Positions 333-34,224 of a DNA stretch of 34,224 nt are shown in pieces. The notes beneath the pieces were generated by a model, which saw only the letters and a program-made list of their open reading frames with translations, did no database searches and was not told the DNA's origin. The stretch spans positions 1 to 34,224 of the forward strand of contig CAJQQG010000001.1 in NCBI GenBank assembly GCA_905480425.1, read 5' to 3'. The stretch's first letter is position 1. Each line of letters begins with the position of its first letter. Source of the DNA: an uncultured Flavobacteriaceae bacterium. Its GTDB lineage: Bacteria; Bacteroidota; Bacteroidia; Flavobacteriales; Flavobacteriaceae. A program made the translations under genes and the position numbers.

Positions 333-357
333 TCTATGATTTCTTAAATAGAATTTT

Positions 358-399
358 AATTATCCATGTGGTAAATACTCCGCATGGATAATTTTTTTT
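358..399 (+). terminator. Rho-independent terminator between acpP and fabF
   Basis: An inverted repeat of 14 pairs (one G-T) runs from 358-371 to 380-393, with an 8-base loop, followed by a run of T at 394-399. This is the strongest intrinsic terminator seen in the window. It lies 25 bases after the acpP stop and should end most acpP transcripts, leaving fabF dependent on read-through or on its own promoter just downstream. Confidence 0.85.
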
Positions 400-403
400 A
401 ATT

Positions 404-411
404 TACATTTG
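404..411 (+). promoter_or_regulatory. Possible fabF -7 promoter box
   Basis: TACATTTG fits TAnnTTTG and lies 28 bases before the fabF start, directly after the acpP terminator. No convincing TTG is seen at the -33 spacing, so this may be a weak promoter. It would allow fabF and the rnc-pyk genes to be transcribed independently of acpP. Confidence 0.4.
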
Positions 412-439
412 GTTTATATCTAAACTAAAAACAAGTTCA

Positions 440-1690: not shown

Positions 1691-1699
1691 CTTGTTGTT

Positions 1700-2440: not shown

Positions 2441-2916
2441 ATGCTAAAAAAGTATACAATTTAGAACTTGAAGAAACTTTTGAAGAAGTTAACTTGATTG
2501 CAATTCATTCTTCCTTAGAAGGCTATCAATTAGCATTTTACTTAAACAACACCCTGAACAGTAATTTTAAAAGGAGTGAAAACGACCTCAGCTTCAAAGG
2601 CATTAAAAATAATTTTATTCATTTTGAGTGGGAAGACAAAATGTATGACTTTCAATGTTCTTTATTTTCAAATAAATACCACAACGAATTAAAACAGCAA
2701 AAGTTAATTTCCAATAATTTATTCAACCTTCCCATAAGAAATGAGGTATATTTGTTTTCAGAACTTAAACAAGTTGATTTTTTCATTAAATCTTCAGACC
2801 AAGAAACAATTGAAACTGTTTTATCACATCTCAAAAAATGGTCGAAAATATCTCTCTTATACCGAGTAAATACTGAAGTTATTAAAAAAAAAATAAACGT
2901 AATATTTCATAAATGA
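2437..2916 (+). CDS. IPExxxVDY-family protein (degenerate motif)
   Basis: Protein of 159 residues of unknown function. Bacteroidota genomes commonly hold an IPExxxVDY-family protein between rnc and pyk, and this gene occupies that place. The family motif is recognisable but altered: residues around 108-117 read FSELKQVDFF where the family name would require IPExxxVDY. No signal peptide or membrane segment is visible, so it is probably cytoplasmic. Its start overlaps the rnc stop and its stop overlaps the pyk start, both as ATGA, so its dose should follow those two genes. The family assignment rests on position and the partial motif; no biochemical role is known to me. Confidence 0.75.
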   Translation: MNAKKVYNLELEETFEEVNLIAIHSSLEGYQLAFYLNNTLNSNFKRSENDLSFKGIKNNFIHFEWEDKMYDFQCSLFSNKYHNELKQQKLISNNLFNLPIRNEVYLFSELKQVDFFIKSSDQETIETVLSHLKKWSKISLLYRVNTEVIKKKINVIFHK

Positions 2917-4340
2917 GTTTTATAAAAAAAACAAAAATCGTTGCAACACTTGGACCTGCAACAGCTTCTGAAGACGTCATTGAAAAAATGATTTTAGAGG
3001 GAGTAAATGTATTTCGGATTAACTTTTCACATGCTGATTACCAAGACGTTTCTGATCGAATTAAAATGATTAGAAAGGTTGATAAAAAGCTAGATACTAA
3101 TACCTCAATCTTGGCTGACCTTCAAGGACCAAAACTTCGTGTTGGGAAAATGGAAGATGATACTTTTGTAAACTCGGGAGATAAAGTAGTTTTCTTAACA
3201 GACGAACCTTTTGTTGGAAATTCAAAAAAAGCTTTCATGAACTATCGGAATTTTCCTAACGACGTTTCAAAAGGAGAGCAAATTTTATTGGATGACGGAA
3301 AATTGATTTTTGAAGTTATTGAAACCAATAAATCCAATAAAGTTATAGCAAAAGTAATTCAAGGAGGTCCTTTTAAATCAAATAAAGGAGTCAACCTACC
3401 TAATACAAATATTTCATTACCTGCATTGACCGAAAAAGACATAAAAGATGCGGAATTTATTTTTAAACAAGATATAGACTGGATTGCCCTTTCGTTTGTG
3501 CGTTTTAGCCAAGATCTTATTGATTTGAAAGAATTAATGGCAAAACATACAGATCAAGAAATTCCAATTGTTGCTAAAATTGAAAAGCCAGAGGCAATTG
3601 AAAATATTGATAAGATTATTGCGCATTGTGATGGGCTAATGGTTGCCCGTGGTGATCTTGGAGTGGAAGTGCCTGCACAAGAAGTGCCATTAATTCAGAA
3701 ACAATTAGTGCTTTTAGCAAAGCAAGCACGAATACCAATTATCATTGCAACACAAATGATGGAGACAATGATTGACAGTTTAACCCCTACACGAGCCGAA
3801 GTAAATGATGTTGCAAATTCTGTGATGGATGGAGCAGACGCTGTAATGCTTTCTGGAGAAACTTCGGTTGGTAAATATCCTGTTGAAGTCATAAAAACAA
3901 TGACCGGAATCTTAAAAGCCGTTGAAGGCTCGCCTTTAATTAAAGTTCCTCAAATTGCACCTAATATTCGTACAAAACGTTTTATTACTAAATCAATTTG
4001 TTATCATGCAGCACATCTAGCCAACGATATTGATGCAAAAGCAATTTGTACACTCACAAATAGTGGATATACAGCCTATCAAATTTCAGCATGGAGACCT
4101 GAAGCTCATATATTAGTCTTTACATCTAATAAAAAGATTTTAAACCAGCTAAACCTTTTGTGGGGTGTAAAAACTTTTTATTATGACAACTTAAATAGTA
4201 CGGATAAAACTATTGAAGAAATCAATAAAATTGCTTTAGAAAAGGAATGTGTAGAAAAAGAGGATATGCTTATCAACTTAACATCAATGCCAATAAAAGT
4301 AAAAGGAATGGTAAATACATTACGTGTTTCTGTAGTTTAA
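2913..4340 (+). CDS. pyk: Pyruvate kinase
   Basis: Catalyses phosphoenolpyruvate plus ADP to pyruvate plus ATP, the last step of glycolysis, in the cytoplasm. The 475 residues cover the full enzyme: the N-terminal KTKIVATLGPA start of the barrel, the substrate cluster RINFSH (Arg35, Asn37, Ser39), the barrel-inserted B domain around residues 72-165, catalytic Lys222 and metal-binding Glu224 in AKIEKPEA, Asp248 in ARGDLGVEV, and the MDGADAVMLSGETSVGKYP segment. A C-terminal regulatory domain spans about 345-475. Its ATG overlaps the preceding stop. Its stop overlaps the convergent dinB stop by a few bases, with no room for a terminator between the two genes. Confidence 0.97.
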   Translation: MSFIKKTKIVATLGPATASEDVIEKMILEGVNVFRINFSHADYQDVSDRIKMIRKVDKKLDTNTSILADLQGPKLRVGKMEDDTFVNSGDKVVFLTDEPFVGNSKKAFMNYRNFPNDVSKGEQILLDDGKLIFEVIETNKSNKVIAKVIQGGPFKSNKGVNLPNTNISLPALTEKDIKDAEFIFKQDIDWIALSFVRFSQDLIDLKELMAKHTDQEIPIVAKIEKPEAIENIDKIIAHCDGLMVARGDLGVEVPAQEVPLIQKQLVLLAKQARIPIIIATQMMETMIDSLTPTRAEVNDVANSVMDGADAVMLSGETSVGKYPVEVIKTMTGILKAVEGSPLIKVPQIAPNIRTKRFITKSICYHAAHLANDIDAKAICTLTNSGYTAYQISAWRPEAHILVFTSNKKILNQLNLLWGVKTFYYDNLNSTDKTIEEINKIALEKECVEKEDMLINLTSMPIKVKGMVNTLRVSVV

Positions 4341-23694: not shown

Positions 23695-24051
23695 ATGCGT
23701 AGTTTTTATTATTTGAGTAGTTGCGACAGTTGTAAGCGAATTATGGGGACTCTTTCTCTAGATTCTTCAATAAATAAAATCGATATTAAAAAAAATCCTT
23801 TAAATGTTTCCCAACTCGAAGAATTACATACTATTTCTGGAAATTACGAGGTCTTATTCAGCAGAAGAGCACAACTTTACAAGCAGCGTGATTTAAAAAA
23901 TAAAATACTAAGTGAAGAAACCTTAAAACAACTCTTACTTGAGCACTACACTTTTTTGAAACGTCCTGTACTTATTTATGATAAAATATTATTTATTGGC
24001 AATAGTGCTGCAGTTGTCGAAAAGGCGAAGACTTTCTTAGATGAACAATAG
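23695..24051 (+). CDS. ArsC/Spx-like thioredoxin-fold protein
   Basis: Protein of 118 residues of the ArsC/Spx/YffB family. It opens FYYLSSCDSCKRIM with a CxxC pair (Cys10, Cys13), followed by the family's SINKIDIKKNPLNVSQLEEL segment and a later KRPVLIYDKILFIGN, which corresponds to the RPxxxxxxxxxxG strand of the family. The third region with an Arg near residue 90 is kept. True glutaredoxin-linked arsenate reductases carry a single active Cys; the CxxC here is closer to Spx-like or redox proteins, so arsenate reduction should not be assumed. The stop overlaps the start of the next gene by 11 bases. Confidence 0.85.
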   Translation: MRSFYYLSSCDSCKRIMGTLSLDSSINKIDIKKNPLNVSQLEELHTISGNYEVLFSRRAQLYKQRDLKNKILSEETLKQLLLEHYTFLKRPVLIYDKILFIGNSAAVVEKAKTFLDEQ

Positions 24052-24949
24052 AATTTTAGCACTTTTTGCTGCCTTAGGAGCTACCACTATTTATGGAATA
24101 AATCATACGGTTGCAAAGGTTATCATGCCCCATTATATTGGACCTTTTGGTTTTATTATGCTGCGTGTAGTAGGTGCTACAGTTTTGTTTTGGCTTGTAA
24201 GTCTTTGGATGCCTAAAGAAAAAATTGATCGTAAAGATTATCCTAGAGTTTTTGGAGCTTCTCTATTAGGAATGTGTATTAATATGCTTATGTTTTTTAA
24301 AGGATTACAGCTTTCTACTCCAATAAATAGTGGTGTAATCGTAACTTTAACTCCAATAATTATTCTTATTCTTTCTGCTTACTTTTTAAAAGAACGGTTA
24401 ACTAGATTTAAATATTTAGGAATTTTCATAGGCTTTTCTGGTGCCTTATTACTAATTCTTTATGGTAATACTTCGCAAGTTTCTAACGCCCCAAATGTGC
24501 CACTAGGAAACATTATGATGCTTATTAATGCCATTAGTTATGGTGCCTATTTAGTCACTGTGAAGCCGTTAACTAAAAAATATAGTACCGTAACCTTAAT
24601 GAAATGGATGTTTTTACTGGGTGTGTTTTTAACCACTCCTATCACTTTTTCAGAGGCAAGTGCTGTTTCTTGGAGCACGCTTCCCCTTGATGCTATTTGG
24701 CGAATGGCCTTCGTAATTATTGGTACTACTTTTTTAGCCTACTTATTTAATGTATATGCTTTAAAAGCATTGCCCCCAACTACAATTGGGGCTTTTACTT
24801 ATCTACAACCTTTAATAACTATAGTTTATGCAGTTTTAACCGGAAATGACACCTTAGATATCGTTAAAGTTTTGGCTTGTATCTTGGTGTTTTTAGGAGT
24901 TTATTTAGTTTCTAAAAAAAGTAATAATCAAATTAAAGCAGTTGCTTGA
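24041..24949 (+). CDS. EamA-family (DMT superfamily) transporter
   Basis: Inner-membrane protein of 302 residues with about ten helices arranged as two EamA repeats, roughly residues 5-140 and 155-290. Typical segments are FAALGATTIYGINHTVAKVIM at the start, MLMFFKGLQLSTPINSGVIVTLTPIIILI at the end of repeat 1, and LNVYALKALPPTTIGAFTYLQPLITIV in repeat 2. Such proteins export amino acids, nucleosides or other metabolites; the substrate cannot be predicted. The 11-base overlap with the ArsC/Spx-like gene implies coupled expression. Confidence 0.92.
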   Translation: MNNRILALFAALGATTIYGINHTVAKVIMPHYIGPFGFIMLRVVGATVLFWLVSLWMPKEKIDRKDYPRVFGASLLGMCINMLMFFKGLQLSTPINSGVIVTLTPIIILILSAYFLKERLTRFKYLGIFIGFSGALLLILYGNTSQVSNAPNVPLGNIMMLINAISYGAYLVTVKPLTKKYSTVTLMKWMFLLGVFLTTPITFSEASAVSWSTLPLDAIWRMAFVIIGTTFLAYLFNVYALKALPPTTIGAFTYLQPLITIVYAVLTGNDTLDIVKVLACILVFLGVYLVSKKSNNQIKAVA

Positions 24950-24960
24950 TGAAATATGTT

Positions 24961-24985
24961 TATTGTAAATAAAATACAATATTTT
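24961..24985. terminator. Weak AT-rich hairpin between convergent genes
   Basis: TATTGTA (24961-24967) pairs with TACAATA (24975-24981) around a seven-base loop, followed by TTTT to 24985. It lies between the ends of the EamA transporter gene and the convergent peptidase gene and could serve as a two-way terminator. The stem has no strong G+C pairs, so the call is tentative. Confidence 0.35.
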
Positions 24986-26270
24986 AATTGATTCCTGTTT
25001 CAGACAATACTATTAGTAAAGCTAATTGAATGGCTTTATAACCTTCTTCATTTACCCACCACTCGCCCAGGGAGTGTGCTTTTCCTCCATTTCCTCCCCT
25101 ACCAATAGTAACTGAAGGAATCCCTTTGGTGATAGGAATATTAGAATTGGTGGAACCACGTGTTAAAAAAGGTTCTGCGCCAAAATGAGTTGTTGCAGCT
25201 AATGTTCTTTGAATTAATGGGAGTGTGTCTGAAAGTTCTCCAGAAGGTCTATTTCCTATTTTATCAATTTTAACCGTTAAATCTGGACCTTGTCGTTTAA
25301 GATCATTTTGATGTGCTAATGCTTTTTTAACAGCTTCCTTTAAAATTACTTCCATGGCATCTAAACGTTTGGGCTCAATGGAGCGAATATCAATTTCCAT
25401 AATAGATTCAAAAGGAATTGAATTGATGGAGGTTCCGCCAGAAACAACTCCAACATTATAACTAGTCTTTGGGCCTTTTTCGGTATAAATATCTGATGCT
25501 CTTACAAAATTACCGATGGCTTCTCCCATTGCATGATGAGGATTTCCTAATCCAAAAGTACCCCACGAATGTCCTCCAGGACCCTCGAAAGTTACGCGAT
25601 AGCGATAAGAACCTAAGCCTTTGTTGTTGACTCTCCCAATATTTCCTCCATCAATAGCAATCCAGCTATCGATTTGAGGTCCATTTTCTCTAAAAAGGTG
25701 TTTTACTCCTCTAAGGTCTCCCAATCCTTCTTCTCCGACAGATCCAACAAAGAGGAGGTTGTTTTTGGGCTGAATATTATTAGCTTTTATAGTTTCGAGA
25801 ATCGTTAATATCATACTTAAGCCTCGAGTATCGTCTCCAATTCCTGGAGCAAACAAGGTGTCGTTTTGAATTTTAACCTCCACATTTGTTCCCTCGGGAA
25901 AAACAGTATCTAAATGTGCATCCAGGGCAACTGTTTGCTTTCCTTCTGATCCTAGAAGAAGTCCTAAAACATTTCCTTCCGAATCAATCCAAACGGAATC
26001 CATTCCTAAATCTCTATAATATTCCGCAAAAACTGTCGCCCGCTTTTCTTCTTTAAATGGTGGCGCTTCAATCTCGGTAAGAGCGATGTGACGTTCTAAG
26101 GTTTTGGTCTCTAAGCTTACAATATGCTCAAAAGCTGCTTTCACTTTTTTATTTTTAACTAATCTTTTAATGGCCTTTGTGTATTTCTTTTCAATTGTAA
26201 TCTTATCCTGACAAAAGGATAGGTTTATAAAAAAAAATGAGATAAGAAAAAGGGATGTTCTGAAAATCAT
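24984..26270 (-). CDS. Exported M20-family zinc metallopeptidase
   Basis: Protein of 428 residues with a signal peptide (about 1-20, ending INLSFCQD; the Cys20 could also be lipidated). The di-zinc peptidase residues are seen: His119 and Asp121 in DAHLDTVFPEG, Asp146 in GIGDDTRG, Glu180-Glu181 in GSVGEEGLGDLRG, and a late histidine in GGNGGKAHSLGEWW. The dimerisation (lid) domain sits between, with GPGGHSWGTFG at about residue 231. This corresponds to M20 peptidases of the PepT/aminoacylase type rather than M28. It presumably trims peptides outside the cytoplasm. A thioesterase gene starts the unit just upstream, leaving 8 bases. Confidence 0.87.
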   Translation of the reverse strand: MIFRTSLFLISFFFINLSFCQDKITIEKKYTKAIKRLVKNKKVKAAFEHIVSLETKTLERHIALTEIEAPPFKEEKRATVFAEYYRDLGMDSVWIDSEGNVLGLLLGSEGKQTVALDAHLDTVFPEGTNVEVKIQNDTLFAPGIGDDTRGLSMILTILETIKANNIQPKNNLLFVGSVGEEGLGDLRGVKHLFRENGPQIDSWIAIDGGNIGRVNNKGLGSYRYRVTFEGPGGHSWGTFGLGNPHHAMGEAIGNFVRASDIYTEKGPKTSYNVGVVSGGTSINSIPFESIMEIDIRSIEPKRLDAMEVILKEAVKKALAHQNDLKRQGPDLTVKIDKIGNRPSGELSDTLPLIQRTLAATTHFGAEPFLTRGSTNSNIPITKGIPSVTIGRGGNGGKAHSLGEWWVNEEGYKAIQLALLIVLSETGIN

Positions 26271-26278
26271 ATTTTTTT

Positions 26279-26758
26279 TTATTGGATCAAATCTTTTGGA
26301 ATTTTATTCCATTTACGAGTGTCTTTTGAGGTTATCACTTTATAATTAGCGGTTTTAAATGAGGCTTCAAATTGATTTGTTAGATCTAAAGGTAGTGATG
26401 TTAATTTTCTTGAATTTAAATTCAACCAACCGCCTATCATTTCGCAACGTGAAATATTAGTGCCTTTTTCATTATAAAAATTATGTTCAAATTCAAAAAA
26501 AGTACCTTCTTTACTTAGTCCTGCCAACGCTGTAGATACACGAATTTTTTGACCCAGGAAGGCTTCTTTGAAATAGAAAAACTGCTCGTTAAAAACAACT
26601 GGGCCTATCATCATTTTTGATAGTTTTTTATTGTTTAAGCCTAAGGATAACAAAAAGGCCAAACGTGATTCTCCAGCATATGTAATGTATGACACATTTG
26701 CTAAATGGCGATTTGCATCCAAATCACTCCATCTTATTTCAAATTCTTTTAAAAACAT
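26279..26758 (-). CDS. 4-hydroxybenzoyl-CoA-type acyl-CoA thioesterase
   Basis: Single hotdog-fold protein of 159 residues. The opening LKEFEIRWSDLDANRHLANVSYITYAGESR matches the 4HBT signature (DxDxxxHxNNxxY), with Asp14 as the likely catalytic residue and Leu/Ala in place of the usual Val/Asn near residue 19-20. The later FEFEHNFYNEKGTNISRCE strand is the central sheet of the hotdog. It would release free acids from acyl-CoA in the cytoplasm; the substrate is unknown. It is the first gene of a two-gene unit with the M20 peptidase. Confidence 0.85.
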   Translation of the reverse strand: MFLKEFEIRWSDLDANRHLANVSYITYAGESRLAFLLSLGLNNKKLSKMMIGPVVFNEQFFYFKEAFLGQKIRVSTALAGLSKEGTFFEFEHNFYNEKGTNISRCEMIGGWLNLNSRKLTSLPLDLTNQFEASFKTANYKVITSKDTRKWNKIPKDLIQ

Positions 26759-26813
26759 CCTTTTAATTTTTTTATAAAACTATTCTTTTTCTATTTTTAA
26801 CGAAATTTAATTC

Positions 26814-27293
26814 ATGAAAAAAATCATTACTGTTTTCTTATTCTTATTTTTATTTAGCTGTGGCTCAAAAGATGAAAAGAAAAAAGGATTCGAATATAAT
26901 CGTACTCAAAAGATTGATAAAAAATCTAATGATAGAAATGTGAGTAAAACTCCTGTAGATTTAAACAATAAAGGTATTGGTCCCATAAAAAAAGTTGATT
27001 TTGAAACTACTATAAATAATGATTTAGCTGAAAAAGGAAAAGCGACCTTTAATCAGAAATGTACTGCCTGTCATATGGCAAACAGAAAATTGATTGGCCC
27101 AGCAATGAAGGGAATTTATGAGCGTCGTAGTCCAGAGTGGGTGATGAATATGTTGTTAAATCCTGCAGAAATGTTAAAAAAAGATCCTGTAGCAATTGCT
27201 TTGCTTAAAGAATATAATAACATAATGATGCTAAATCAAAACTTGACTAACGAGGAAGCACGCAGTATTACTGAATACTTGAGGACTTTGTAA
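26814..27293 (+). CDS. Lipoprotein c-type cytochrome
   Basis: Protein of 159 residues. Lipoprotein signal MKKIITVFLFLFLFSC with Cys16 as the lipid anchor; a lysine-rich linker of about 50 residues; then a single class I cytochrome c domain with haem motif CTACH (Cys83, Cys86, His87) and a likely Met ligand at 138 or 139 in NIMMLNQNLT. LIGPAMKGIYERRSPEWVMNMLLNP is the usual surrounding sequence in Bacteroidota cytochromes. It should sit on a membrane facing the periplasm and carry electrons. The last 22 codons and about 60 bases downstream recur as a decayed copy at 31582-31713. Confidence 0.93.
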   Translation: MKKIITVFLFLFLFSCGSKDEKKKGFEYNRTQKIDKKSNDRNVSKTPVDLNNKGIGPIKKVDFETTINNDLAEKGKATFNQKCTACHMANRKLIGPAMKGIYERRSPEWVMNMLLNPAEMLKKDPVAIALLKEYNNIMMLNQNLTNEEARSITEYLRTL

Positions 27294-27361
27294 TTCTTTT
27301 GAGTATCCATTTGCATATTCATTTGCATATTTATCAATAGTACCTCCTTTTCATCTGTAAA

Positions 27362-27378
27362 GTGTAAAAGGTTTACAC
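27362..27378 (+). repeat. Palindromic repeat, copy 1
   Basis: GTGTAAA-AGG-TTTACAC, a perfect 7+3+7 palindrome, preceded by a further TGTAAA (27356-27361) and followed by CCCC. It lies 68 bases after the cytochrome c stop and 18 bases before the small membrane protein at 27397. All four copies have the same orientation, with the purine-rich spacer on the plus strand. Confidence 0.8.
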
Positions 27379-27396
27379 CCCCTTAAATCAACTAAA

Positions 27397-27579
27397 ATGA
27401 AATCAAAATTTGCTCAAATGGTTTTTCGGATATTGGGTTATATTGCAAAATCAGGTTGGATTGTTGTAATTATATTTGAACTTATAGATGGAAAATATTT
27501 TTCTGCAATAGGATGGTTTTGTTTCGGTTTAATATTTTTTTTCCCACAATGGCTTTATAAGAATTTCTTTGGTGGATAG
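27397..27579 (+). CDS. Small membrane protein (60 aa) between palindromes 1 and 2
   Basis: Short reading frame MKSKFAQMVFRIL... with two hydrophobic stretches (about 9-28 and 34-55, the latter with several Phe, Trp and Tyr) separated by the polar turn ELIDGKYFS. A Lys/Arg-bearing N terminus is present. It fills the space between two palindromes almost exactly, 18 bases after the first and 9 before the second. Composition and the membrane pattern argue for a real gene, but no family is recognised. It could be a small stress or toxin-like membrane peptide; that is a guess. Confidence 0.55.
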   Translation: MKSKFAQMVFRILGYIAKSGWIVVIIFELIDGKYFSAIGWFCFGLIFFFPQWLYKNFFGG

Positions 27580-27898
27580 TATTTGTAAGTGTAAAGGGTT
27601 TACAGGGGTGTTTTCTATTTCTTCAATCATTTAAAAACTATGAAGCAATAAAAAATGAAAATGAAAATAACAGCAAATAAAATTATAGGTCTTGAAAAAA
27701 ATTCTTTCATAATACAAAAATAACGTTTTCTATTTATTGACGTTTTCTTTTAAACCACAGGCATATCATCTTCTGTAAGTTCTAGAATACACTTTACCAA
27801 GAATGAAACAAGCTACTAATGAAGTAAGTGAATACTTGCATTTGTTTGTTAAGTAAGTTCTGGGATTTGTGATTTTTTAAGTGTAAAGTGTAAAGGGT
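27580..27898. other. Gap with palindrome 2 and no clear gene
   Basis: This stretch holds palindrome copy 2 at its start, the first part of copy 3 at its end and about 280 bases between. The only frames are under 25 codons (for example ATG at 27662). A short direct repeat ACGTTTTCT occurs twice near 27723-27751. It may be the remains of a small gene unit. I see no further feature. Confidence 0.5.
27589..27605 (+). repeat. Palindromic repeat, copy 2
   Basis: GTGTAAA-GGG-TTTACAG: inner six pairs TGTAAA/TTTACA are perfect, and the outer pair is lost by one change. It begins nine bases after the stop of the 60-aa membrane protein. Confidence 0.75.
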
Positions 27899-27904
27899 TT
27901 ACAC
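27888..27904 (+). repeat. Palindromic repeat, copy 3
   Basis: GTGTAAA-GGG-TTTACAC, perfect 7+3+7, with an additional GTGTAAA directly before it (27881-27887). The GTG TAA that ends the MGR-family gene on the minus strand (27899-27904) is inside the palindrome, so repeat and gene end share sequence. Confidence 0.8.
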
Positions 27905-28186
27905 CCCTTCTGGAAGTTCTCTGCTTTCAACATCAAAACCTTCACCTGACTCCTTTTTAGTACAAACATCCAAAAAGACTGGTTGCTCCCAAGCGCCTTC
28001 CGTTTCTCCTGAAACGTGCTTTAGTTTTGGTAATAGATATTGCAATCCTATCTGCAGCATCTTCAGTTTCTGGTCGGTTGTCATCTCACTAATATCTAAT
28101 TGAGATACTACGTCATCCATTACTGTCTGTAGTTTGTTTTTTACTTCTGTGGTAAGTTTATTTGGCTGTCCTGCTATTCTGCCCAT
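27899..28186 (-). CDS. Small MGR-family protein (95 aa), intact copy
   Basis: Protein of unknown function with three visible parts. A basic N terminus MGRIAGQPNKLTTEVKN resembles the GRxxGxxNK openings seen in some phage and mobile-element proteins. A helical core VMDDVVSQLDISEMTTDQKLKMLQIGLQYLLPKLKH follows. An acidic tail contains AWEQPVFLDV and ends ELPEGV. Two related broken copies occur nearby (28646-28705 and 31768-32016), so it belongs to a locally repeated family; the core is best conserved, the tail less. The stop lies in palindrome 3. It starts 19 bases from the divergent small membrane protein. DNA or nucleic-acid binding is a guess from the basic start. Confidence 0.7.
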   Translation of the reverse strand: MGRIAGQPNKLTTEVKNKLQTVMDDVVSQLDISEMTTDQKLKMLQIGLQYLLPKLKHVSGETEGAWEQPVFLDVCTKKESGEGFDVESRELPEGV

Positions 28187-28205
28187 ATTTTATTATTTTA
28201 GTTAT

Positions 28206-28391
28206 ATGAAAGACTTTCTTAAAAAATATCCTGAAATTTTATTAACTGGGGGCATTCTTTTATCTATTGCAGGTCATTACTATCCTGATGAAACAGCTAC
28301 TAATAACTTTATTGCAGCAGGTATTTATATAGTCTCTGCTGTACTTTTTGTACTTGCAGCAATTGGCTTTCTTATGAAAAACAAGAAATAA
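28206..28391 (+). CDS. Small membrane protein (61 aa)
   Basis: Start at ATG 28206 gives MKDFLKKYPEILLTGG..., with two hydrophobic helices (about 10-24 and 36-56) joined by the polar turn HYYPDETATNN and a basic KNKK end. The frame extends upstream to 28134, but that would run antisense into the MGR-family gene, so the inner ATG is preferred. It is divergent from that gene with only 19 bases between. No family is recognised. Like the 60-aa protein at 27397 it is a two-helix protein inside the palindrome region. Confidence 0.6.
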   Translation: MKDFLKKYPEILLTGGILLSIAGHYYPDETATNNFIAAGIYIVSAVLFVLAAIGFLMKNKK

Positions 28392-28402
28392 AAACCTGTA
28401 CT

Positions 28403-28513
28403 TTATTTTTTAGAGAAAGTCATTATCCTTGACTTGCTTTCAAATCTACTTGTCTGATTGTTTAGTTTTTGATAAACAACCCTTACAGTTACTGTGCTTC
28501 TATTGTTGGTCAT
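28403..28513 (-). CDS. Possible 36-aa peptide
   Basis: Reads MTNNRSTVTVRVVYQKLNN... and ends FSKK. The sequence is balanced and slightly basic rather than low-complexity, with alternating Val/Thr strands, but at this length chance cannot be excluded. It lies downstream of the hydrophobic fragment on the same strand. Confidence 0.25.
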   Translation of the reverse strand: MTNNRSTVTVRVVYQKLNNQTSRFESKSRIMTFSKK

Positions 28514-28634
28514 ATAATTGATTATTTAAACGTTTCTATTATTAGGTATACTATCCATACGAGTATTAAAACGATGAAGTAAATCTCAAACGCTTTCGTC
28601 TAAATATTCATCAAGATTAAAAGCTGTCTGTAAA

Positions 28635-28651
28635 ATTTAAAAGGTTTACAC
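28635..28651 (+). repeat. Palindromic repeat, copy 4 (left arm degenerate)
   Basis: ATTTAAA-AGG-TTTACAC: the right arm and spacer match copy 1 exactly, the left arm differs at two positions, and the preceding TGTAAA (28629-28634) is kept. As in copy 3, the stop codon of an MGR-family reading frame (GTG TAA) is within the right arm. Confidence 0.7.
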
Positions 28652-28705
28652 CTTTTTTGGAAGTGGTTTCCTTTCAGTCTCCCAACCGCCATTTTCTTCG
28701 CCCAT
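28646..28705 (-). pseudogene. MGR-family remnant with internal deletion
   Basis: Nineteen codons: MGEENGGWETERKPLPKKV. The first two codons and the upstream bases match the start of the intact gene at 28186. From Glu4 on it matches the C-terminal tail, best seen against the other remnant (KENGGWNSDIRP) and the intact tail ELPEGV. It looks like the family gene with about 75 internal codons deleted. Too short for a folded protein. Confidence 0.6.
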
Positions 28706-28750
28706 ATTATCTTAACAGAAATAGATATAACATCCTTTTTTACTAAAGGA

Positions 28751-30994
28751 TTAATTTAACTTCCAACGTAAACCAAAGAAAAATCGAATACCTTGGTTTG
28801 ATGCATAAACATAAGAAGGATCAAAAGTTAATGCAAAAGGATTATTTTTTGTAGACATTGCATTTCCTTCTGTATCAAAAGTAACTTCATTATCAAAAGG
28901 GTCAAATGATCTCGCAATACTATCTCTAGGTGGTGTAAAATCTAGTAGGTTTTTAACACCACCATAGGATTCAAAAGTGTTATTCCAAGATTTTGTTAGC
29001 TGAAAATTTAAAATATGAAAAGTTTTTGAATAAGAAGATCTAGGATCAAGTATTCCGAGGGTTGGTAACTTTAAGGGCCCTGTAGCTGTCCCTGTTATAT
29101 CTAACACAAGATTTGAGGTTATCCATTTTTTCTCGATTTTCCAAACCCCTTGAAACCTTTCGGTCAAGTAAGGAGTTGTTCTAAGCTTTTGCTTATTTAT
29201 ATAAGAATCAATATATGTTGCTCCTAAATTAACTCTAAAACCATTTTGAATCAAAAGGTTAAAATTCAGTGAAGCTCCTTGATGTATTGAATTCCCATTG
29301 AGATTAGCATAGATAATTTTATTAGGATCGGTATCGTAGTCTGGAATAATTTTATTTGAAAATTGGGTATGAAAAATACTGAAATCAAAATCTACTATTG
29401 CTCCTTGTTTTAAGTATAACTTTTTAAGAAAATTACCATTTATATTCCAAGATCTTTCCGGATCTATATCTTCTAAGAAAACCACATCACGAGCTCCAGT
29501 TAAAGCTGCATGATCTTCCGTAAAAACTTGTGCTACGCGATAGCCAGATCCAATACTAAATCGAACGGTTGTACTTTTAGCCTTATTACTTATTTTATAA
29601 TTAACTCTAGGTGTCAAAATATTTCCATGAAGGGAATTATAATCATAACGAAGACCAAGTAATAGAGTGTTTTTTGAATTGAATATTATCTCATCTTGAA
29701 TAAATATTCCTGGTAAATGTGTAATTTTCTCCTGATTTAGTTTTGACAATTCATTAAATGTGGCTGTGGTATCATCATCATAGATTGTATAGCGATATGC
29801 CATTCCAAGTAAAATGTCGTGACGTTTTATGTTTTTATTCCAAACGAATTGTCCAAAACCAATTGTTTGGTTTGCATTGAAAGAAGTTGATCCATAAACA
29901 GAATTTTGATTATGGTCATTTAAACTGAAACTAAATGAAAACTCCGAATTTAATTCATACTTACCAAAAATTTCAAATCGTGCAGTAAAAATACTTTCTC
30001 CATAAATACTTTCTCCTCCGCGATATTCAGGCGACCAATTCATTTGGCCACCCCACCTGTCTTCATAGACAAATCGGGTTGCAATTGATAATTTTTTTCC
30101 AAAAGTTAGCTTGTTAAAAATAGAAATACGGTCCTGTAGTGTTAAATCTGTGAAACCGTCTTGATTATTATCTATTGGGTTTGAATAATTAAAATAATTT
30201 ATACCTATCAAACCTGAATTTTTATCAGATAAACGATACTTAAATCCAATATCTGTATTAATTTCTCCCCAGCCTGATAAAAAAGAATCTACGGCTAGTT
30301 TGGATGTATTTTCAGGTAACCTAGTAATTAAATTGATCACACCCCCAATGGCCTCTGAACCGTAAAGTGTTGAGGCAGGACCTTTAATCACTTCAACGCG
30401 TTCAATCAGAGATTGTGGTATCCCAGATAAACCATAGACGGTTGACAATCCGCTAACTATTGGTAAGCCATCTATAAGTATCATTGTATAGCTTCCCTCT
30501 TGACCATTGATATGAATATCCCCTGTATTACATACATTACAATTCAACTGTGGTCTGATACCATTAATATTTTCTAAGGCCTCAAAAATTGAAGCTGTTG
30601 GGTTAGCTTTAAAAAAAGTTTGACTGTACACTTCAACTGGCACAGGACTATCCAACTTAGAGACCGGTTTTAAAGTCCCTGAAATTACAACCTCATCTAA
30701 GGTTTCATCAGATTCTAAAACTATAATTCCAAGATTTAAATCTCCAACATCTATTTTCCGTATAACTGGTTTATAACCGATATACGAAAATATTAATTTT
30801 TGATTTTTTAAATTAGCAATGTTTAATTTAAATTGTCCCTCAAAATCGGTTATTGTTCCAATATTTGAACTTTTTAAAAGTATAGAAACACCCTCCAGGG
30901 GTTGCCCATTAAAAAAAACCTTTCCCTTAACAGAAAGTTCCTGTGCTGAGGCTATTTGAATTATAAAAAAGAGGAAAACCAAACGAATTGTCAT
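28751..30994 (-). CDS. TonB-dependent outer-membrane receptor (probable metal uptake)
   Basis: Protein of 747 residues: signal peptide 1-18, a carboxypeptidase-regulatory-like beta domain (about 19-100), plug domain (about 110-230) with LIDGLPIV, VEVIKGPASTLYGSEAIGGVINLIT, and a 22-strand barrel to the C terminus. The plug has a CNVC cysteine pair (Cys152, Cys155) followed by TGDIHINGQEG, a feature of one receptor subgroup in Bacteroidota. It takes up an unknown ligand using TonB energy. It is divergent from a DtxR/MntR-type regulator, and its promoter is overlaid by two operator-like repeats, so the cargo is most likely a metal, manganese or iron. The cargo is inferred from the regulator, not seen. 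Confidence 0.92.
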   Translation of the reverse strand: MTIRLVFLFFIIQIASAQELSVKGKVFFNGQPLEGVSILLKSSNIGTITDFEGQFKLNIANLKNQKLIFSYIGYKPVIRKIDVGDLNLGIIVLESDETLDEVVISGTLKPVSKLDSPVPVEVYSQTFFKANPTASIFEALENINGIRPQLNCNVCNTGDIHINGQEGSYTMILIDGLPIVSGLSTVYGLSGIPQSLIERVEVIKGPASTLYGSEAIGGVINLITRLPENTSKLAVDSFLSGWGEINTDIGFKYRLSDKNSGLIGINYFNYSNPIDNNQDGFTDLTLQDRISIFNKLTFGKKLSIATRFVYEDRWGGQMNWSPEYRGGESIYGESIFTARFEIFGKYELNSEFSFSFSLNDHNQNSVYGSTSFNANQTIGFGQFVWNKNIKRHDILLGMAYRYTIYDDDTTATFNELSKLNQEKITHLPGIFIQDEIIFNSKNTLLLGLRYDYNSLHGNILTPRVNYKISNKAKSTTVRFSIGSGYRVAQVFTEDHAALTGARDVVFLEDIDPERSWNINGNFLKKLYLKQGAIVDFDFSIFHTQFSNKIIPDYDTDPNKIIYANLNGNSIHQGASLNFNLLIQNGFRVNLGATYIDSYINKQKLRTTPYLTERFQGVWKIEKKWITSNLVLDITGTATGPLKLPTLGILDPRSSYSKTFHILNFQLTKSWNNTFESYGGVKNLLDFTPPRDSIARSFDPFDNEVTFDTEGNAMSTKNNPFALTFDPSYVYASNQGIRFFFGLRWKLN

Positions 30995-31003
30995 ATTTGA
31001 TTA

Positions 31004-31078
31004 TATTAATTAGTTTTATACTACAAAACATTATTAGTTTACAAATGTATTAATTAGTTTTATACTGCAAAACATTAT
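31004..31078. promoter_or_regulatory. Tandem operator over the receptor promoter
   Basis: A 31-base sequence occurs twice (31004-31034 and 31048-31078) with one difference. Each holds a 17-base imperfect palindrome GTTTTATACTrCAAAAC (31013-31029 and 31057-31073); centres are 44 bases apart, about four helical turns. On the minus strand a TTG at 31070-31068 and TACATTTG at 31049-31042, with 18 bases between, form a near-ideal promoter for the receptor. One operator covers the TTG and the other lies just after the expected transcription start. This is the layout of a repressor site, most likely for the adjacent DtxR/MntR-type protein. Confidence 0.75.
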
Positions 31079-31080
31079 AT

Positions 31081-31491
31081 ATGAAAAATACTATTGAAAA
31101 AGAAAATTATCTAAAGGTTGTTTATAAGATGGAAGAAAAATCTCAAAAAATTAGTGTCACATCTCTTTCAAAAAATTTTAATGTTAGTATGTCTACAGTA
31201 TCTAATATGATCAAAAAATTGGTTGTCATGAATTTGGTAGACAGTAAACCCTATAAACCAATTATTTTGACAAAACAAGGAAGGCAGAGTGCTTTAGAAA
31301 TAATTGCAAAGCACCGTTTAATCGAACTCTATTTAGTAGAAAAAATGCAATTTAGTTTAGATGAGGTACACGAAATTGCTGAAGAAATTGAACACATAAA
31401 AAATACAAAGTTTTTTAATCGAATGAAGGAAATTTTAGGAAATGCCCAGCTAGATCCACACGGGTCGATTATCCCAAAGTGTGACTTTTAG
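31081..31491 (+). CDS. DtxR/MntR-family metal-dependent repressor (short form)
   Basis: Regulator of 136 residues with the winged-helix domain first (about 7-68, ISVTSLSKNFNVSMSTVSNMIKKL) and a dimerisation/metal domain after it. It ends at about the point where B. subtilis MntR ends, and lacks the SH3-like third domain of DtxR. Aligned metal ligands are His78, Glu82, His97, Glu101, Glu104 and His105. Glu101 stands where DtxR has Cys102, the arrangement seen in manganese-sensing MntR; the residue equal to MntR Asp8 is Asn9. It ends DPHGSIIPKCDF. It probably represses the divergent receptor when metal is ample. The start codon lies three bases from the second operator repeat, suggesting self-control. 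Confidence 0.88.
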   Translation: MKNTIEKENYLKVVYKMEEKSQKISVTSLSKNFNVSMSTVSNMIKKLVVMNLVDSKPYKPIILTKQGRQSALEIIAKHRLIELYLVEKMQFSLDEVHEIAEEIEHIKNTKFFNRMKEILGNAQLDPHGSIIPKCDF

Positions 31492-31581
31492 TTTGTTAAA
31501 AAATTCAAGAGAATATCTATAAATAGTGATGTGTGAGAGAACAAAAGTTTATGTAAATGCAAGGTTATTTAGGGTGTTCTG

Positions 31582-31713
31582 ATACTTAATCAAAACTTGG
31601 CTAACGAGGAAGCACAGAGTATCACTGAGTATTTAAGGGCTTTATAATTTTTTTGAGTATGTATTTTGCATATTCATTTTTCATATTTGTCAAGAATACC
31701 GTCTATTTTCACC
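31582..31713 (+). pseudogene. Decayed cytochrome c tail and downstream copy
   Basis: Bases 31582-31647 read ILNQNLANEEAQSITEYLRAL then TAA, matching the last 22 residues of the cytochrome c at 26814-27293 at about 19 positions. Most base differences are silent, so the copy evolved under selection before it was cut off. Similarity goes on past the stop (GAGTAT, GCATATTCAT, CATATTT) to about 31713. The haem-binding part is absent. Confidence 0.75.
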
Positions 31714-31740
31714 TAAACTTTTAATAAGATAAAAAAAGTT

Positions 31741-31764
31741 TGTAAAGCATAAAATGTATACGAC
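31741..31764 (+). repeat. Degenerate palindrome of the decayed block
   Basis: TGTAAAGCATAAAATGTATACGAC matches the 24 bases of copy 1 (27356-27379 region) at about 18 positions but has lost dyad symmetry. It sits four bases before the stop of the broken MGR-family gene, the same relation as at copies 3 and 4. Confidence 0.5.
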
Positions 31765-31767
31765 TTG

Positions 31768-32016
31768 TTAATGGTCTTTAATTGGAAAAGTTCCAAATGG
31801 TCTAATATCAGAGTTCCATCCTCCATTTTCTTTATCTCTGGTTACGATGTCAATAAACAATGGTCAGTCTAAAACCTCTTTTTCATTTGACTCGTGCTTC
31901 AGTATTTGGAACTGGTATTGCAGTCCCATTTGGAGCATCTTTATTTTTTGGTCTGCGCTTATAGAATCAATGTCAAGCTGAAATACTACATCGTCCATAT
32001 CTAGTAAATTATGCAT
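31768..32016 (-). pseudogene. MGR-family gene, broken copy
   Basis: From ATG at 32016 the frame reads MHNLLDMDDVVFQLDIDSI..., then SADQKIKMLQMGLQYQFQILKH, clearly the same core as the intact 95-aa protein. A TGA at 31864-31866 interrupts it, after which PLFIDIVTRDKENGGW continues in frame to a stop at 31768. The basic N terminus (about 15 residues) is missing. Identity to the intact copy is roughly half, so this is an old duplicate. The frame surviving after the stop suggests the mutation is fairly recent. Confidence 0.7.
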
Positions 32017-32106
32017 TTAAAATGAATAATCTTATTTACGTATTTAGTGATCTCTAAATCATTTCGTAAACTGATCAATTTAATAACCAAATTATATTCA
32101 TAATTA

Positions 32107-32125
32107 TATAGTTATACTAACTATA
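32107..32125. repeat. Perfect AT-rich palindrome
   Basis: TATAGTTA-TAC-TAACTATA, perfect 8+3+8, nine bases beyond the stop codon of the minus-strand FGE gene. It may be a weak transcription end or a protein-binding site. It does not match the GTGTAAA palindromes. Confidence 0.45.
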
Positions 32126-32134
32126 AAAAGATGT

Positions 32135-33193
32135 TTACTTTGACGGAGATTCAATTGATTTAACTAATCTAAATCCTGTATGTTGTAAACCAGTGTCAGG
32201 AGAGGACTTCATCCTTGAAGCTACTCTATAGCCTGAACAATATGCATCATTGCAAAGAAAAGATCCTCCGCGCATAACCTTTTGCCTTAAATAGGGTTGG
32301 TAAGGATCATATGGTGCTTCAGGACCTTGAGGATTATTCCCTCTTTGACTTTCAAAAGATTCGTAATAAGTATAATCATACCAATCTGAGCACCATTCCC
32401 AAACATTACCAGCCATATCAAATAGACCGAAAGGGTTTGGTTTAAAAGAGCCTACTGGAGCAGTGTAAAAAAACTCATCCTTAAGTGTATTCTTATAAGG
32501 GAAACTCCCCTCCCATGCATTTGCTTTGGGTTCTCCAGTTGTAACTGCTTCGTCGCCCCATGGATACTTTTTATTCACTCCTCCACTTGCGGCCCATTCC
32601 CATTCTGCTTCTGTAGGTAAACGCTTTCCTGCCCAAGCGGCATAAGCTTGTGCATCATACCAAGAAATATGAACTACAGGATGGTCCATTTTATTTTCAA
32701 TCGAACTTCCCTTTCCTTTTGGATAACGCCAACTGGCTTTAGACTTCCATTGCCACCATGCACCATAATCATTGAGGTTTACAGGACCATCTGTTGCTTC
32801 AAATACTAATGAAGCTGCTTTAAGTAGTGAGTCATTTGGCTTAGGTGTATCTGGAGGAAGTTCTTTTTTCAATTCCTCCCAATTAGGTTTTTTTTCTGCA
32901 GTAGTTATATATCCAGTAGCATCAATAAATTCCTTGAATTGAAAATTGGTAACCTCGGTTTGATCCATCCAAAAAGCATTAACATGAACAGGATGAATAG
33001 GGGATTCATCGTCTCTAGCTTGTTCATCGCTGCTTCCCATTAGAAAATCACCAGAAGGAATCATTACCATACCATCTTTTATGACTTTAGGTAGATTTTT
33101 CAATTCCTTATTAGCACATTTAGCAAAAAATAAAAAGATAAATAATCCCGAAAGTAGATTAATTTGAAGATTTTTAAATATTTCTAGTTTCAT
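32135..33193 (-). CDS. Formylglycine-generating enzyme (sulfatase activator)
   Basis: Protein of 352 residues of the FGE-sulfatase family. It oxidises a cysteine of sulfatases to formylglycine, using oxygen and copper in the aerobic enzyme. A hydrophobic N terminus (about 12-25) ending AKC suggests export and perhaps lipidation at Cys26. The domain opens MVMIPSGDFLMGSSDEQARD and contains RLPTEAEWEWAA, MAGNVWEWCSDWY and MRGGSFLCNDAYCSGYR. The last holds Cys314 and Cys319, in the spacing of the two active cysteines of true FGE, which many FGE-like proteins lack. GFRLVK closes the fold. A sulfatase gene with a CTPSR site is divergent 263 bases away, fitting the role. Confidence 0.9.
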   Translation of the reverse strand: MKLEIFKNLQINLLSGLFIFLFFAKCANKELKNLPKVIKDGMVMIPSGDFLMGSSDEQARDDESPIHPVHVNAFWMDQTEVTNFQFKEFIDATGYITTAEKKPNWEELKKELPPDTPKPNDSLLKAASLVFEATDGPVNLNDYGAWWQWKSKASWRYPKGKGSSIENKMDHPVVHISWYDAQAYAAWAGKRLPTEAEWEWAASGGVNKKYPWGDEAVTTGEPKANAWEGSFPYKNTLKDEFFYTAPVGSFKPNPFGLFDMAGNVWEWCSDWYDYTYYESFESQRGNNPQGPEAPYDPYQPYLRQKVMRGGSFLCNDAYCSGYRVASRMKSSPDTGLQHTGFRLVKSIESPSK

Positions 33194-33456
33194 CTAAATC
33201 GTATCTGTTACTGTTTTTATAAGGTATATTTCCATTTGATGTCTTTAAATTGTTTTTATGATGATTTATAGTTACTTAAATTAATAGAATATTTTGATTT
33301 TAAACACTCTTTTTAAATTACTCTTTAAAAAATTGATTATTATTTAAGCTATTTTTTTTGTAGTAGTGGAATTTATTAAACATCCAGAATACGGGAAAAA
33401 AATAAAATGAGGTTTTTTAATCTGACATTATAAATAATAATATTAAATTTAAATAT

Positions 33457-34224
33457 ATGATACAACTATACATAACACTATTAACAGGTTTAATTTTTAA
33501 CTCTAGTTATAGACCATATTATGAAATTAAATCAAATTTAAAACCAAATTTTATTATTGTTTTTGTAGATGATATGGGTTACGGAGATTTAGGGTCTTAT
33601 GGGCATCCAACCATCAGCACACCCAATCTAGATAAAATGGCCTACGAAGGCCAAAAGTGGACTCAGTTCTACTCTGCGTCAAGTGTTTGTACTCCAAGTA
33701 GAGCAGGATTATTAACTGGCAGACTTCCAATAAGAAATGGAATGATTGGTTCAAAAAACAGAGTTCTATTTCCAGATTCAAAATATGGACTACCCGATTC
33801 TGAGATTACTATTGCAGAAAAATTAAAAGAAAATGGATATAAAACTGTAGCAATAGGTAAATGGCATTTAGGCCATAAGAAAGAATATCTTCCTCTTCAA
33901 CATGGATTTGATTATTATTATGGCATTCCATATTCGAATGACATGGATAAAATCAATGGTGAAACATGTTGTCCTGGATCAAAATATTGGCAAAAATATC
34001 AAAATAGAAGTCCAGGATCAACTAATTATTACAATGTTCCTTTGATTGAAAATAATGAAATTATTGAAAGACCAGTAGATCAAACAACAATAACCAAAAG
34101 GTTTTCAGATAAAGCGGTTGAATTTATCAAAAAAAATAAAGAAGATAATTTCTTTATTTATCTGGCTCACAACCTACCACATATTCCCCTTTATGCTTCA
34201 GATGATTTTTTAGGAAAAAGTAAA
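33457..34224 (+). CDS. Sulfatase, partial (runs off the window)
   Basis: Open from ATG at 33457 to the end of the window, 256 codons with no stop; a whole enzyme would be about 450-550. A hydrophobic N terminus suggests export. Metal ligands are Asp38-Asp39 in VDDMGYGDLG. The formylglycine site is CTPSRAG with Cys78. GKWHLG supplies Lys135 and His137. HGFDYYYGIPYSNDM and AHNLPHIPL follow as in arylsulfatase A-like S1 enzymes, including the N-acetylgalactosamine-6-sulfatase type. It cleaves sulfate esters, probably from sulfated polysaccharide. Cys-type maturation matches the neighbouring formylglycine-generating enzyme. The substrate and the C-terminal half cannot be judged. Confidence 0.93.
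   Translation, partial: MIQLYITLLTGLIFNSSYRPYYEIKSNLKPNFIIVFVDDMGYGDLGSYGHPTISTPNLDKMAYEGQKWTQFYSASSVCTPSRAGLLTGRLPIRNGMIGSKNRVLFPDSKYGLPDSEITIAEKLKENGYKTVAIGKWHLGHKKEYLPLQHGFDYYYGIPYSNDMDKINGETCCPGSKYWQKYQNRSPGSTNYYNVPLIENNEIIERPVDQTTITKRFSDKAVEFIKKNKEDNFFIYLAHNLPHIPLYASDDFLGKSK

What the first reader, a model, noticed from the sequence alone, without database searches (positions are those of the whole stretch)
27294..28750. Palindrome-delimited run of tiny genes, possibly a new kind of cassette array
Seen: GTGTAAA-N3-TTTACAC occurs at 27362, 27589, 27888 and 28635, always in the same orientation and mostly preceded by an extra (G)TGTAAA. The units between hold a 60-aa membrane protein (fitting its unit to within 18 and 9 bases), a unit with no clear gene, and a divergent pair of a 95-aa and a 61-aa protein. 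Inference: the palindromes may be recombination or insertion sites for small gene units. Alternatives are operators for one regulator, hairpin ends of transcripts, or 3' scars of a repeated gene, since the MGR gene stop lies in the palindrome.
Basis: partly seen in the sequence, partly recalled or inferred. Interest (0 to 1): 0.72.

Follow-up and report, generated by a model that had tools for sequence, protein, structure and literature searches.

The report
Gene-cassette island beside a cytochrome gene
The run of tiny genes is the end of a genomic island inserted in the tail of a cytochrome gene in a marine flavobacterium, and it contains one copy of a short site that elsewhere in this and related genomes separates interchangeable one-gene units and looks copied from the end of a recombinase gene, an integron-like gene-shuffling system that still needs a bench test.

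Summary
The palindromes are real: three near-perfect copies where 0.01 are expected, plus a degenerate fourth. They are probably not the cassette sites: 12 of 18 distinct good matches lie within 200 bp of a tRNA, a tRNA half-copy or the cytochrome c 3' end. The run 27294-31580 is flanked by copies of the cyt c 3' end (101 of 121 identical). In 11 of 15 relatives where the downstream neighbour is visible the site is empty; G004 carries one gene there between similar repeats. The run is a tandem pile-up of integrative-element ends.
The "unit with no clear gene" (27735-27880) holds another repeat (core ~47 bp) found in 18 of 38 genomes of the genus, 0 in the control. It is the reverse complement of a tyrosine recombinase gene's end. 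It separates mostly single-gene units in one orientation, and several units shared between genomes start and stop at it. Six of 15 recombinase loci have 1-6 extra copies of their own 3' end downstream on the same strand, none on the opposite. Exchange at the site is shown by comparison; catalysis by this recombinase is inferred. G000 and G004, with the most copies, lack it.

The parts
26814..27293 (+). cytochrome c lipoprotein gene whose 3' end is the attachment target
   Evidence: PF00034 E=4.4e-10; homologues in the genus
27226..27344 (+). attachment-site copy 1: cyt c 3' end, stop, and the sequence just beyond
   Evidence: 101 of 121 aligned positions identical to copy 2
27310..27333 (+). 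12-bp-spaced direct repeat TTTGCATATTCA-TTTGCATATTTA, probably an integrase arm-type site
   Evidence: similar repeats directly after cyt c in 4 of 21 sequences (window, L065, L068, L077), read by eye; role inferred
27355..27380 (+). palindrome 1 with extra TGTAAA box
27397..27579 (+). 60-aa putative membrane protein (cargo)
   Evidence: 163 of 171 bp match at another place in G004
27589..27605 (+). palindrome 2
27743..27790 (-). cassette site: reverse complement of the last codons of a tyrosine recombinase gene (ELTEDDMPVV-stop)
27783..27870 (+). degenerate remnant of the 95-aa gene's family, part of the long form of the site
27881..27906 (+). palindrome 3; the stop codon of the 95-aa gene (27899-27901) lies in it
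27899..28186 (-). 95-aa 'MGR' gene, multicopy in the genus, element-end gene
   Evidence: distant relative beside an integrase in a Bacteroides phage
28206..28391 (+). 61-aa small membrane-type protein divergent from MGR
   Evidence: L117 has a 58-aa small protein, not similar in sequence, in the same position
28628..28653 (+). palindrome 4, degenerate left arm
28646..28705 (-). 3'-terminal fragment of a second MGR-type gene (MGEENGGWETERKPLPKKV-stop)
   Evidence: repeats D3 and D7
28751..30994 (-). TonB-dependent receptor-like gene (cargo; named from its sequence, no family scan run)
   Evidence: 71% DNA homologue over 2.7 kb, together with the next gene, at another place in G004
31081..31491 (+). 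136-aa DtxR/MntR-like regulator (cargo; named from its sequence, no family scan run)
31580..31700 (+). attachment-site copy 2 (cyt c 3' end repeat)
31777..32016 (-). second, degenerate MGR copy at the start of the next tandem unit

Best explanation
(1) The run is the proximal end of a genomic island inserted in the 3' end of a cytochrome c gene. Elements carrying their own copy of the cyt c 3' end integrated there in tandem; each restored the gene and left a constant left end (12-bp-spaced repeats, palindrome, end of the MGR gene) plus cargo. The palindromes are protein-binding sites of the element's attachment arm. (2) Inside it lies one copy (27743-27790) of a cassette site of an integron-like system: the last ~35 bp of a tyrosine recombinase gene serve as the recombination site, every cassette carries a copy, and cassettes (usually one gene, often with its own promoter) line up in one orientation downstream of the recombinase gene or in detached arrays. 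Shown: repeats, empty and occupied sites, shared units with breakpoints at the site, identity of site and recombinase 3' end. Inferred: that the recombinase catalyses cassette movement, the cassette promoters, and the role of the palindromes.
For: Island: cyt c 3' end repeated at 31580. Of 15 relatives where the next conserved gene is seen, 11 have it 582-589 bp from cyt c and 4 have about 0.5-1.5 kb extra. G004 has one gene between cyt c 3'-end repeats. Other MGR copies: in 20 fetched regions 10 have a tRNA within 500 bp of an MGR match and 13 within 1500 bp, against 8% of random places within 500 bp; four have 43-47-bp tRNA-half repeats at 98-100% identity, a fifth 63 bp at 92%. Cassette site: 18 of 38 genus genomes, 0 in control. 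The site is the recombinase 3' end. Fifteen recombinase loci: 18 extra copies of their own last 36 bp downstream on the same strand, 0 downstream on the opposite strand, 1 upstream same strand, 0 upstream opposite, 0 with shuffled cores. 155 of 173 distinct sites have no further recombinase coding sequence beyond the core. Shared cassettes that start and stop at sites on both sides: 1447 bp at 91.7%, 572 bp at 89.0%, 962 bp at 78.2%. G000 against G004: of 60 internal ends of 35 alignments of 300 bp or more, 18 lie within 60 bp of a site in at least one genome (about 3 expected from coverage) and 8 in both (about 0.05 expected). Contig C21 overlaps both C34 and C52 by 141 nt, and these then diverge within the long form of the site. 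A G004/G023 cassette is 98.1% identical over 834 bp while their cyt c genes are 75.7% identical.
Against: G000 and G004, with the most sites, have no recombinase of this family at E<=1e-5; the MAGs are 85-86% complete. Nine of 15 recombinase loci show no extra downstream copy; four of these have under 800 nt downstream, but L245 (18.7 kb downstream, 99% complete genome) is a true negative; L254, whose stop lies beyond its contig, was left out. 42 of 60 alignment ends between G000 and G004 are not near a site. Seven of 173 sites are longer recombinase remnants (L134, L204, L218, L219, two in L251, one in L258). Between two site lineages only 2 of 76 fully typed sites are chimeric, so the crossover point could not be mapped. 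Cassettes shared by G000 and G004 (mostly 86-95%, some 72-77%) are no more alike than two core genes (90% and 94%), so they do not by themselves show recent transfer. Homologous recombination between ~50-150-bp repeats could also reshuffle units. The island in the window has no integrase.
Confidence: 0.68

Rival explanations
1. One reading: the palindromes themselves are recombination sites for small gene units.
For: Four same-orientation copies bound small units in the window. A weak palindrome match (score 11.3, near control level) follows a cassette site in L203, and palindrome matches lie near the int gene in L117 (11695 and 12637) as well as beside its tRNA copies.
Against: 12 of 18 distinct good matches lie at attachment points. 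No exchanged unit bounded by palindromes on both sides was found; the one strong 60-aa homologue matches from its ATG to about its stop. Only 3 of the 18 lie within 200 bp of one of 129 cassette sites.
Confidence: 0.12
2. The cassette sites are only repeats that spread and reshuffle units by RecA-dependent homologous recombination or gene conversion; no dedicated recombinase acts on them.
For: The largest arrays lack the recombinase. Sites plus shared flanks are long enough for homologous recombination.
Against: Copies lie downstream of, and in the orientation of, a recombinase gene: 18 same strand against 0 opposite. The boundary is sharp in 155 of 173 sites. The L247 copy matches its own recombinase (7 mismatches) far better than the five other lineages compared (21-26).
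Confidence: 0.25
3. Ordinary integrons (IntI with attC) with diverged sites.
For: Units in one orientation in tandem beside a tyrosine recombinase gene. Integrons are reported from Bacteroidota, and chromosomal ones can have attC sites conserved in sequence and cassette-borne promoters (PMC8618304, passages read).
Against: No attC box pair in any of 85 sites tested, nor in 85 random windows; no genome of 38 has a TIGR02249 match over the cut-off; the core lies in the recombinase coding region.
Confidence: 0.04
4. The palindromes are operators of one regulator or transcript-end hairpins and have nothing to do with mobility.
For: The motif is an inverted repeat that overlaps the MGR stop; the fourth copy is followed by six T.
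Against: Only three exact places in 1.85 Mb; concentrated at attachment points in several genomes; the first and third copies are not followed by a T-run.
Confidence: 0.12

Closest known systems
Integrons (IntI, attI, attC cassette arrays)
   Same: Tyrosine recombinase gene, first site next to it, tandem units in one orientation, units shared between genomes
   Different: The site is the 3' end of the recombinase coding sequence; no attC boxes; recombinase not IntI by the TIGR02249 cut-off. A promoter-like TAnnTT(T/A)G follows 26 of 85 sites against 2 of 85 controls, but chromosomal integrons can also have cassette-borne promoters and sequence-conserved attC sites (PMC8618304, passages read)
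Additive flexible genomic islands and tandem accretion of integrative or cis-mobilizable elements
   Same: Units piled up at one attachment site and separated by copies of the target gene's 3' end, as at cyt c; [quoted passage not shown]
   Different: Target is a cytochrome c gene; the separate arrays use a recombinase gene's own end as repeat. Accretion of cis-mobilizable elements is recalled, not read
Tycheposons and phage satellites
   Same: Integration at tRNA genes by tyrosine recombinases in streamlined aquatic bacteria (tycheposons as described in passages of PMC10872708); L115 is a 6.5-kb element with integrase, HTH_17, AAA_25 and DUF6371 proteins and a perfect 44-bp tRNA repeat
   Different: No capsid or packaging gene was identified in the L115 element's annotated proteins; MGR function unknown; the original tycheposon paper was not read
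tRNA-Arg genomic island in Gulf of Maine flavobacteria related to MS024-2A (PMC4164334)
   Same: Variable island beside tRNA-Arg in related bacteria (passages read)
   Different: The words integrase, recombinase and cassette do not occur in that paper's main text

Membership tests
Integron | IntI-type integrase | tested here: not met
   0 of 38 genomes over the TIGR02249 cut-off; L119 recombinase 28 bits against a cut-off of 265
Integron | attC sites with R''/R' boxes | tested here: not met
   0 of 85 sites, 0 of 85 random windows, simple box pattern only
Integron | tandem units, mostly one gene, in one orientation | tested here: met
   74 closed units, median 1019 bp; 62 of 113 sites followed by an ATG ORF of at least 50 aa on the same strand, 17 in the mirror position
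Integron | recombinase moves cassettes at the site | not testable with these tools
   needs an excision assay
Integrative element at a gene 3' end (cyt c island) | direct repeats of the target end flank the insert | tested here: met
   window 101 of 121, G004 52 of 67 identical
Integrative element at a gene 3' end (cyt c island) | empty site in relatives | tested here: met
   11 of 15 relatives with the downstream neighbour seen, of 20 fetched
Integrative element at a gene 3' end (cyt c island) | own integrase in the element | tested here: not met
   no PF00589 match listed on the window contig; only a chance-level match (E 0.78) in 27291-34224
Phage satellite / tycheposon | packaging in phage particles or vesicles | not testable with these tools
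   no MGR relative in IMG/VR by the pattern search or, for the window protein, in the phage records; a distant one in two Bacteroides phage records

The most novel reading that the evidence does not exclude
Marine Flavobacteriales carry an integron-like system that is not an integron: a tyrosine recombinase whose own gene's last ~35 bp is the cassette attachment site, so each insertion rebuilds the enzyme's C-terminal tail, and dozens of self-promoted single-gene cassettes are collected, lost and traded between species.
Probability: 0.45. Interest if true: 0.88.

Novelty: new variant of a known kind. Interest (0 to 1): 0.72.

Why it matters
Integrons are the textbook bacterial device for collecting genes as cassettes. 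A second such device with a different site and recombinase, in small-genome ocean bacteria, would explain part of their flexible gene content, give a ready tag (the recombinase 3' end) for finding mobile genes in metagenomes, and show how a cassette system can start from a recombinase whose gene overlaps its own target. The cyt c island is a clean natural record of empty, single and tandem insertions.

Tried and rejected
Rfam on 24000-34224: two matches far below their gathering scores, taken as chance. Pfam, PHROGs and NCBIfam for the three small proteins: no match with E below 0.05. MGR family scans: weak PHROGs matches, phrog_15261 in 11 of 16 members, best E 2.2e-4; no convincing Pfam or PDB match (SUS1 at E 0.0098 taken as chance). 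AlphaFold model of MGR too poor to use (pLDDT 63.8); no fold search was run. Searches of viral contigs and phage records with the window MGR and of plasmid records with the recombinase gave nothing; phage records gave two records of one Yersinia phage at 26% identity for the recombinase and two distant MGR relatives in Bacteroides phages with another MGR as query. MGR was not searched in plasmids. attC idea rejected. Mapping the crossover by two site lineages was inconclusive: 2 chimeras among 76 fully typed sites of 130; 54 not typed on both sides were dropped. A terminator hairpin before each site was looked for by folding: median -7.4 against -6.6 kcal/mol in controls, not convincing overall although clear in single copies. 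My impression that the 60-aa homologue breaks at the palindrome centre was not borne out by alignment. Paper searches for the system; none of the titles and abstract starts listed describes cassette arrays built on a recombinase gene's 3' end, but the library holds only open-licence papers and I opened passages of three papers only (PMC4164334, PMC8618304, PMC10872708).

Full report
What is there. The palindromes at 27362, 27589 and 27888 are far beyond chance (3 at <=1 mismatch, 0.01 expected); the one at 28635 is degenerate but lies in a longer repeat. The genome is a flavobacterial MAG, 1.85 Mb in 79 contigs, 85% complete. Contig lengths tie two of its genus mates to public records: G004:C7 to a record named Flavobacteria bacterium MS024-2A isolate FRAM18_bin161 and G014:C20 to AG-461-O21.

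The run is an island end. The cyt c gene (26814-27293, PF00034) has its last bases, stop and following sequence repeated at 31580-31700 (101 of 121 identical). I fetched 20 relatives' cyt c regions. The conserved downstream neighbour (read by me as a GMC-type oxidoreductase, no scan run) was found in 15: at 582-589 bp in 11, and about 0.5-1.5 kb further away in 4 (G042, G004, G007, G047). The other five had too little downstream sequence or no hit; the window had no hit either. In G004 a single gene, read by me as an esterase, sits between an intact cyt c and a second copy of its 3' end (52 of 67 identical), followed by the sequence that directly follows cyt c in empty genomes. Right after the cyt c stop, the window, L065, L068 and L077 share a 12-bp-spaced direct repeat (by eye). 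This is the anatomy of elements that integrate in a gene's 3' end and carry a copy to restore it. The window holds at least two units in tandem, the second starting at 31580 with its own degenerate MGR gene. I found no integrase in it.

MGR and the palindromes. The 95-aa protein is multicopy: 14 of 40 genomes searched (own included) have it at E<=0.01, all in one genus; with a profile, 10 of 296 genomes of the order (own included), with many of the copies near contig ends. In 20 regions fetched around copies, 16 contain a tRNA gene; the nearest MGR match is within 500 bp of it in 10 and within 1500 bp in 13, against 8% of random places within 500 bp. L115, L117, L121 and L124 show a 43-47-bp repeat of half that tRNA at 98-100% identity, roughly 5.4-9.7 kb away; L126 has 63 bp at 92%. 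L115 is a compact element: integrase (PF00589, PF13102), HTH_17, AAA_25 helicase-like and DUF6371 proteins, MGR at the far end. A distant relative of MGR lies next to the integrase of Bacteroides phage BKO1-TP3. A weight matrix of the palindrome with its extra box gave 26 matches of score >=11 in 851,893 bases against 6 in the reversed control (nine sequences trained the matrix, so their own matches are by construction). Of 18 distinct places scoring at least 17.8, 12 lie within 200 bp of a tRNA, a tRNA half-copy or the cyt c end; three lie within 200 bp of a cassette site. I infer a protein-binding site in the attachment arm; its protein is unknown.

The cassette site. Unit 27735-27880 matches 41 places in the assembly, itself included. 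The core, about 47 bp with information falling to zero outside (85 sites), is present in 18 of 38 genomes of the genus at <=3 mismatches over 30 bases, 24 copies in G000 and 32 in G004, 0 in the control. Read on the other strand it ends in ELTEDDMPVV-stop, and complete recombinase genes of the genus end in ...TYLRGLEIPELNEEDMPMI-stop or close variants. The L119 recombinase (357 aa) is only distantly Xer-like (PF00589 42 bits; far below NCBIfam cut-offs). In the genus 13 of 38 genomes have a match at E<=1e-5, several only fragments; in the order 15 of 296 genomes in 8 of 91 genera at E<=1e-40.

Link between site and recombinase. At 15 recombinase loci I looked for the gene's own last 36 bp (<=9 mismatches) elsewhere in the locus: 18 downstream same strand, 0 downstream opposite, 1 upstream same, 0 upstream opposite; shuffled cores gave 0 downstream. 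Six loci carry the 18 copies (L222 6, L119 5, L251 4, L118, L247 and L258 1 each); nine carry none downstream, four of these with under 800 nt to look at; L254 was left out because its stop lies beyond the contig. The L247 copy has 7 mismatches to its own recombinase and 21-26 to the five others compared, so the site can follow the recombinase lineage; elsewhere lineages overlap, and the L118 copy is nearer to L119 (2) than to its own (8). Among 173 distinct sites 155 have no recombinase coding sequence beyond the core; of the 18 others I count 11 recombinase genes and 7 longer remnants.

Units and exchange. In the held loci 129 sites bound 74 closed units of median 1019 bp (139-3710); 62 of 113 testable sites are followed by an ATG ORF of at least 50 aa within 260 bp on the same strand, 17 in the mirror position. 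A promoter-like TAnnTT(T/A)G follows 26 of 85 sites against 2 of 85 controls. Of ten cassette proteins scanned, seven have Pfam matches: SMP-30, xylose isomerase-like, AHSA1, InlB B-repeat, rhodanese, YgaP-like and beta-lactamase-fold hydrolase. Of 158 homologous unit pairs I re-aligned 21 with flanks. Several begin and end at sites on both sides while neighbours differ: L188 2139-3573 with L211, L123 with L198 1992-2558, L209 6516-7462 with L220; others start or stop at a site on one side only, or span parts of units, and L197/L213 share several blocks in rearranged order. Over all G000-G004 alignments of 300 bp or more (35), 18 of 60 internal ends lie within 60 bp of a site in at least one genome (about 3 expected from coverage) and 8 in both (about 0.05 expected); 42 lie elsewhere. 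Contig C21 overlaps both C34 and C52 by exactly 141 nt, and these then continue into different genes: either two variants in the population or two copies. One cassette is 98.1% identical over 834 bp between G004 and G023, whose cyt c genes are 75.7% identical; this alignment starts 43 bp after the start of the site's 23-bp core in G004 but about 330 bp after it in G023.

Verdict. The palindromes mostly mark element ends at attachment sites; the cassette boundary is the recombinase-gene end. The cyt c island belongs to a known kind. The recombinase-tail cassette arrays work like an integron but fail two defining tests of one (IntI, attC); I found no description of them in the searches listed under Tried and rejected. 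Catalysis by the recombinase is inferred; the lack of a recombinase in the two genomes with the largest arrays is the main gap.

Noticed in passing
L115:1706-8305: 6.5-kb element at tRNA-Asn with integrase, HTH_17, AAA_25, DUF6371 and MGR genes and a perfect 44-bp tRNA repeat; looks like a small satellite or integrative plasmid.
   Followed up: partly
L119:7270-8676: 469-aa protein beside tRNA-Asn with no Pfam or NCBIfam match; motifs recall a DNA polymerase A-like replication protein (recalled, untested).
   Followed up: no
L135:4977-6903: Bacteroides phage BKO1-TP3 has an MGR-like gene (gp58) directly beside its integrase; the relative in phage BF1-TP2 is annotated DUF5681.
   Followed up: partly
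window 32140-34224: Second tandem unit carries what reads as a sulfatase-modifying-factor-like gene and a sulfatase, beyond the second cyt c repeat (named from sequence only).
   Followed up: no
L209:6615-7322, L213:10343-11107, L220:6954-7718, L219:2739-4451, L222:11778-12566, L127:12871-13641: Several cassettes encode secreted proteins of similar size and look (about 236-263 aa, no Pfam match for the one scanned), suggesting repeated capture or duplication of the same kind of gene.
   Followed up: partly
G018:C55:1314-2129, G047:C66:11895-12698, G007:C46:2242-3057: Three genomes have longer partial matches to the integron integrase model (113-131 bits for the larger piece), still below its cut-off.
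   Followed up: no
G071:C22 and G071:C25: A genome of another family (G071) has a recombinase fragment and seven matches to the site pattern in two contigs, one of them in the fragment's own 3' end, so the arrays are not confined to the window's genus.
   Followed up: partly
L212:5366-8070: The window's TonB receptor and regulator pair has a 71% identical relative at another place in G004, about 0.7 kb from a cassette site.
   Followed up: no
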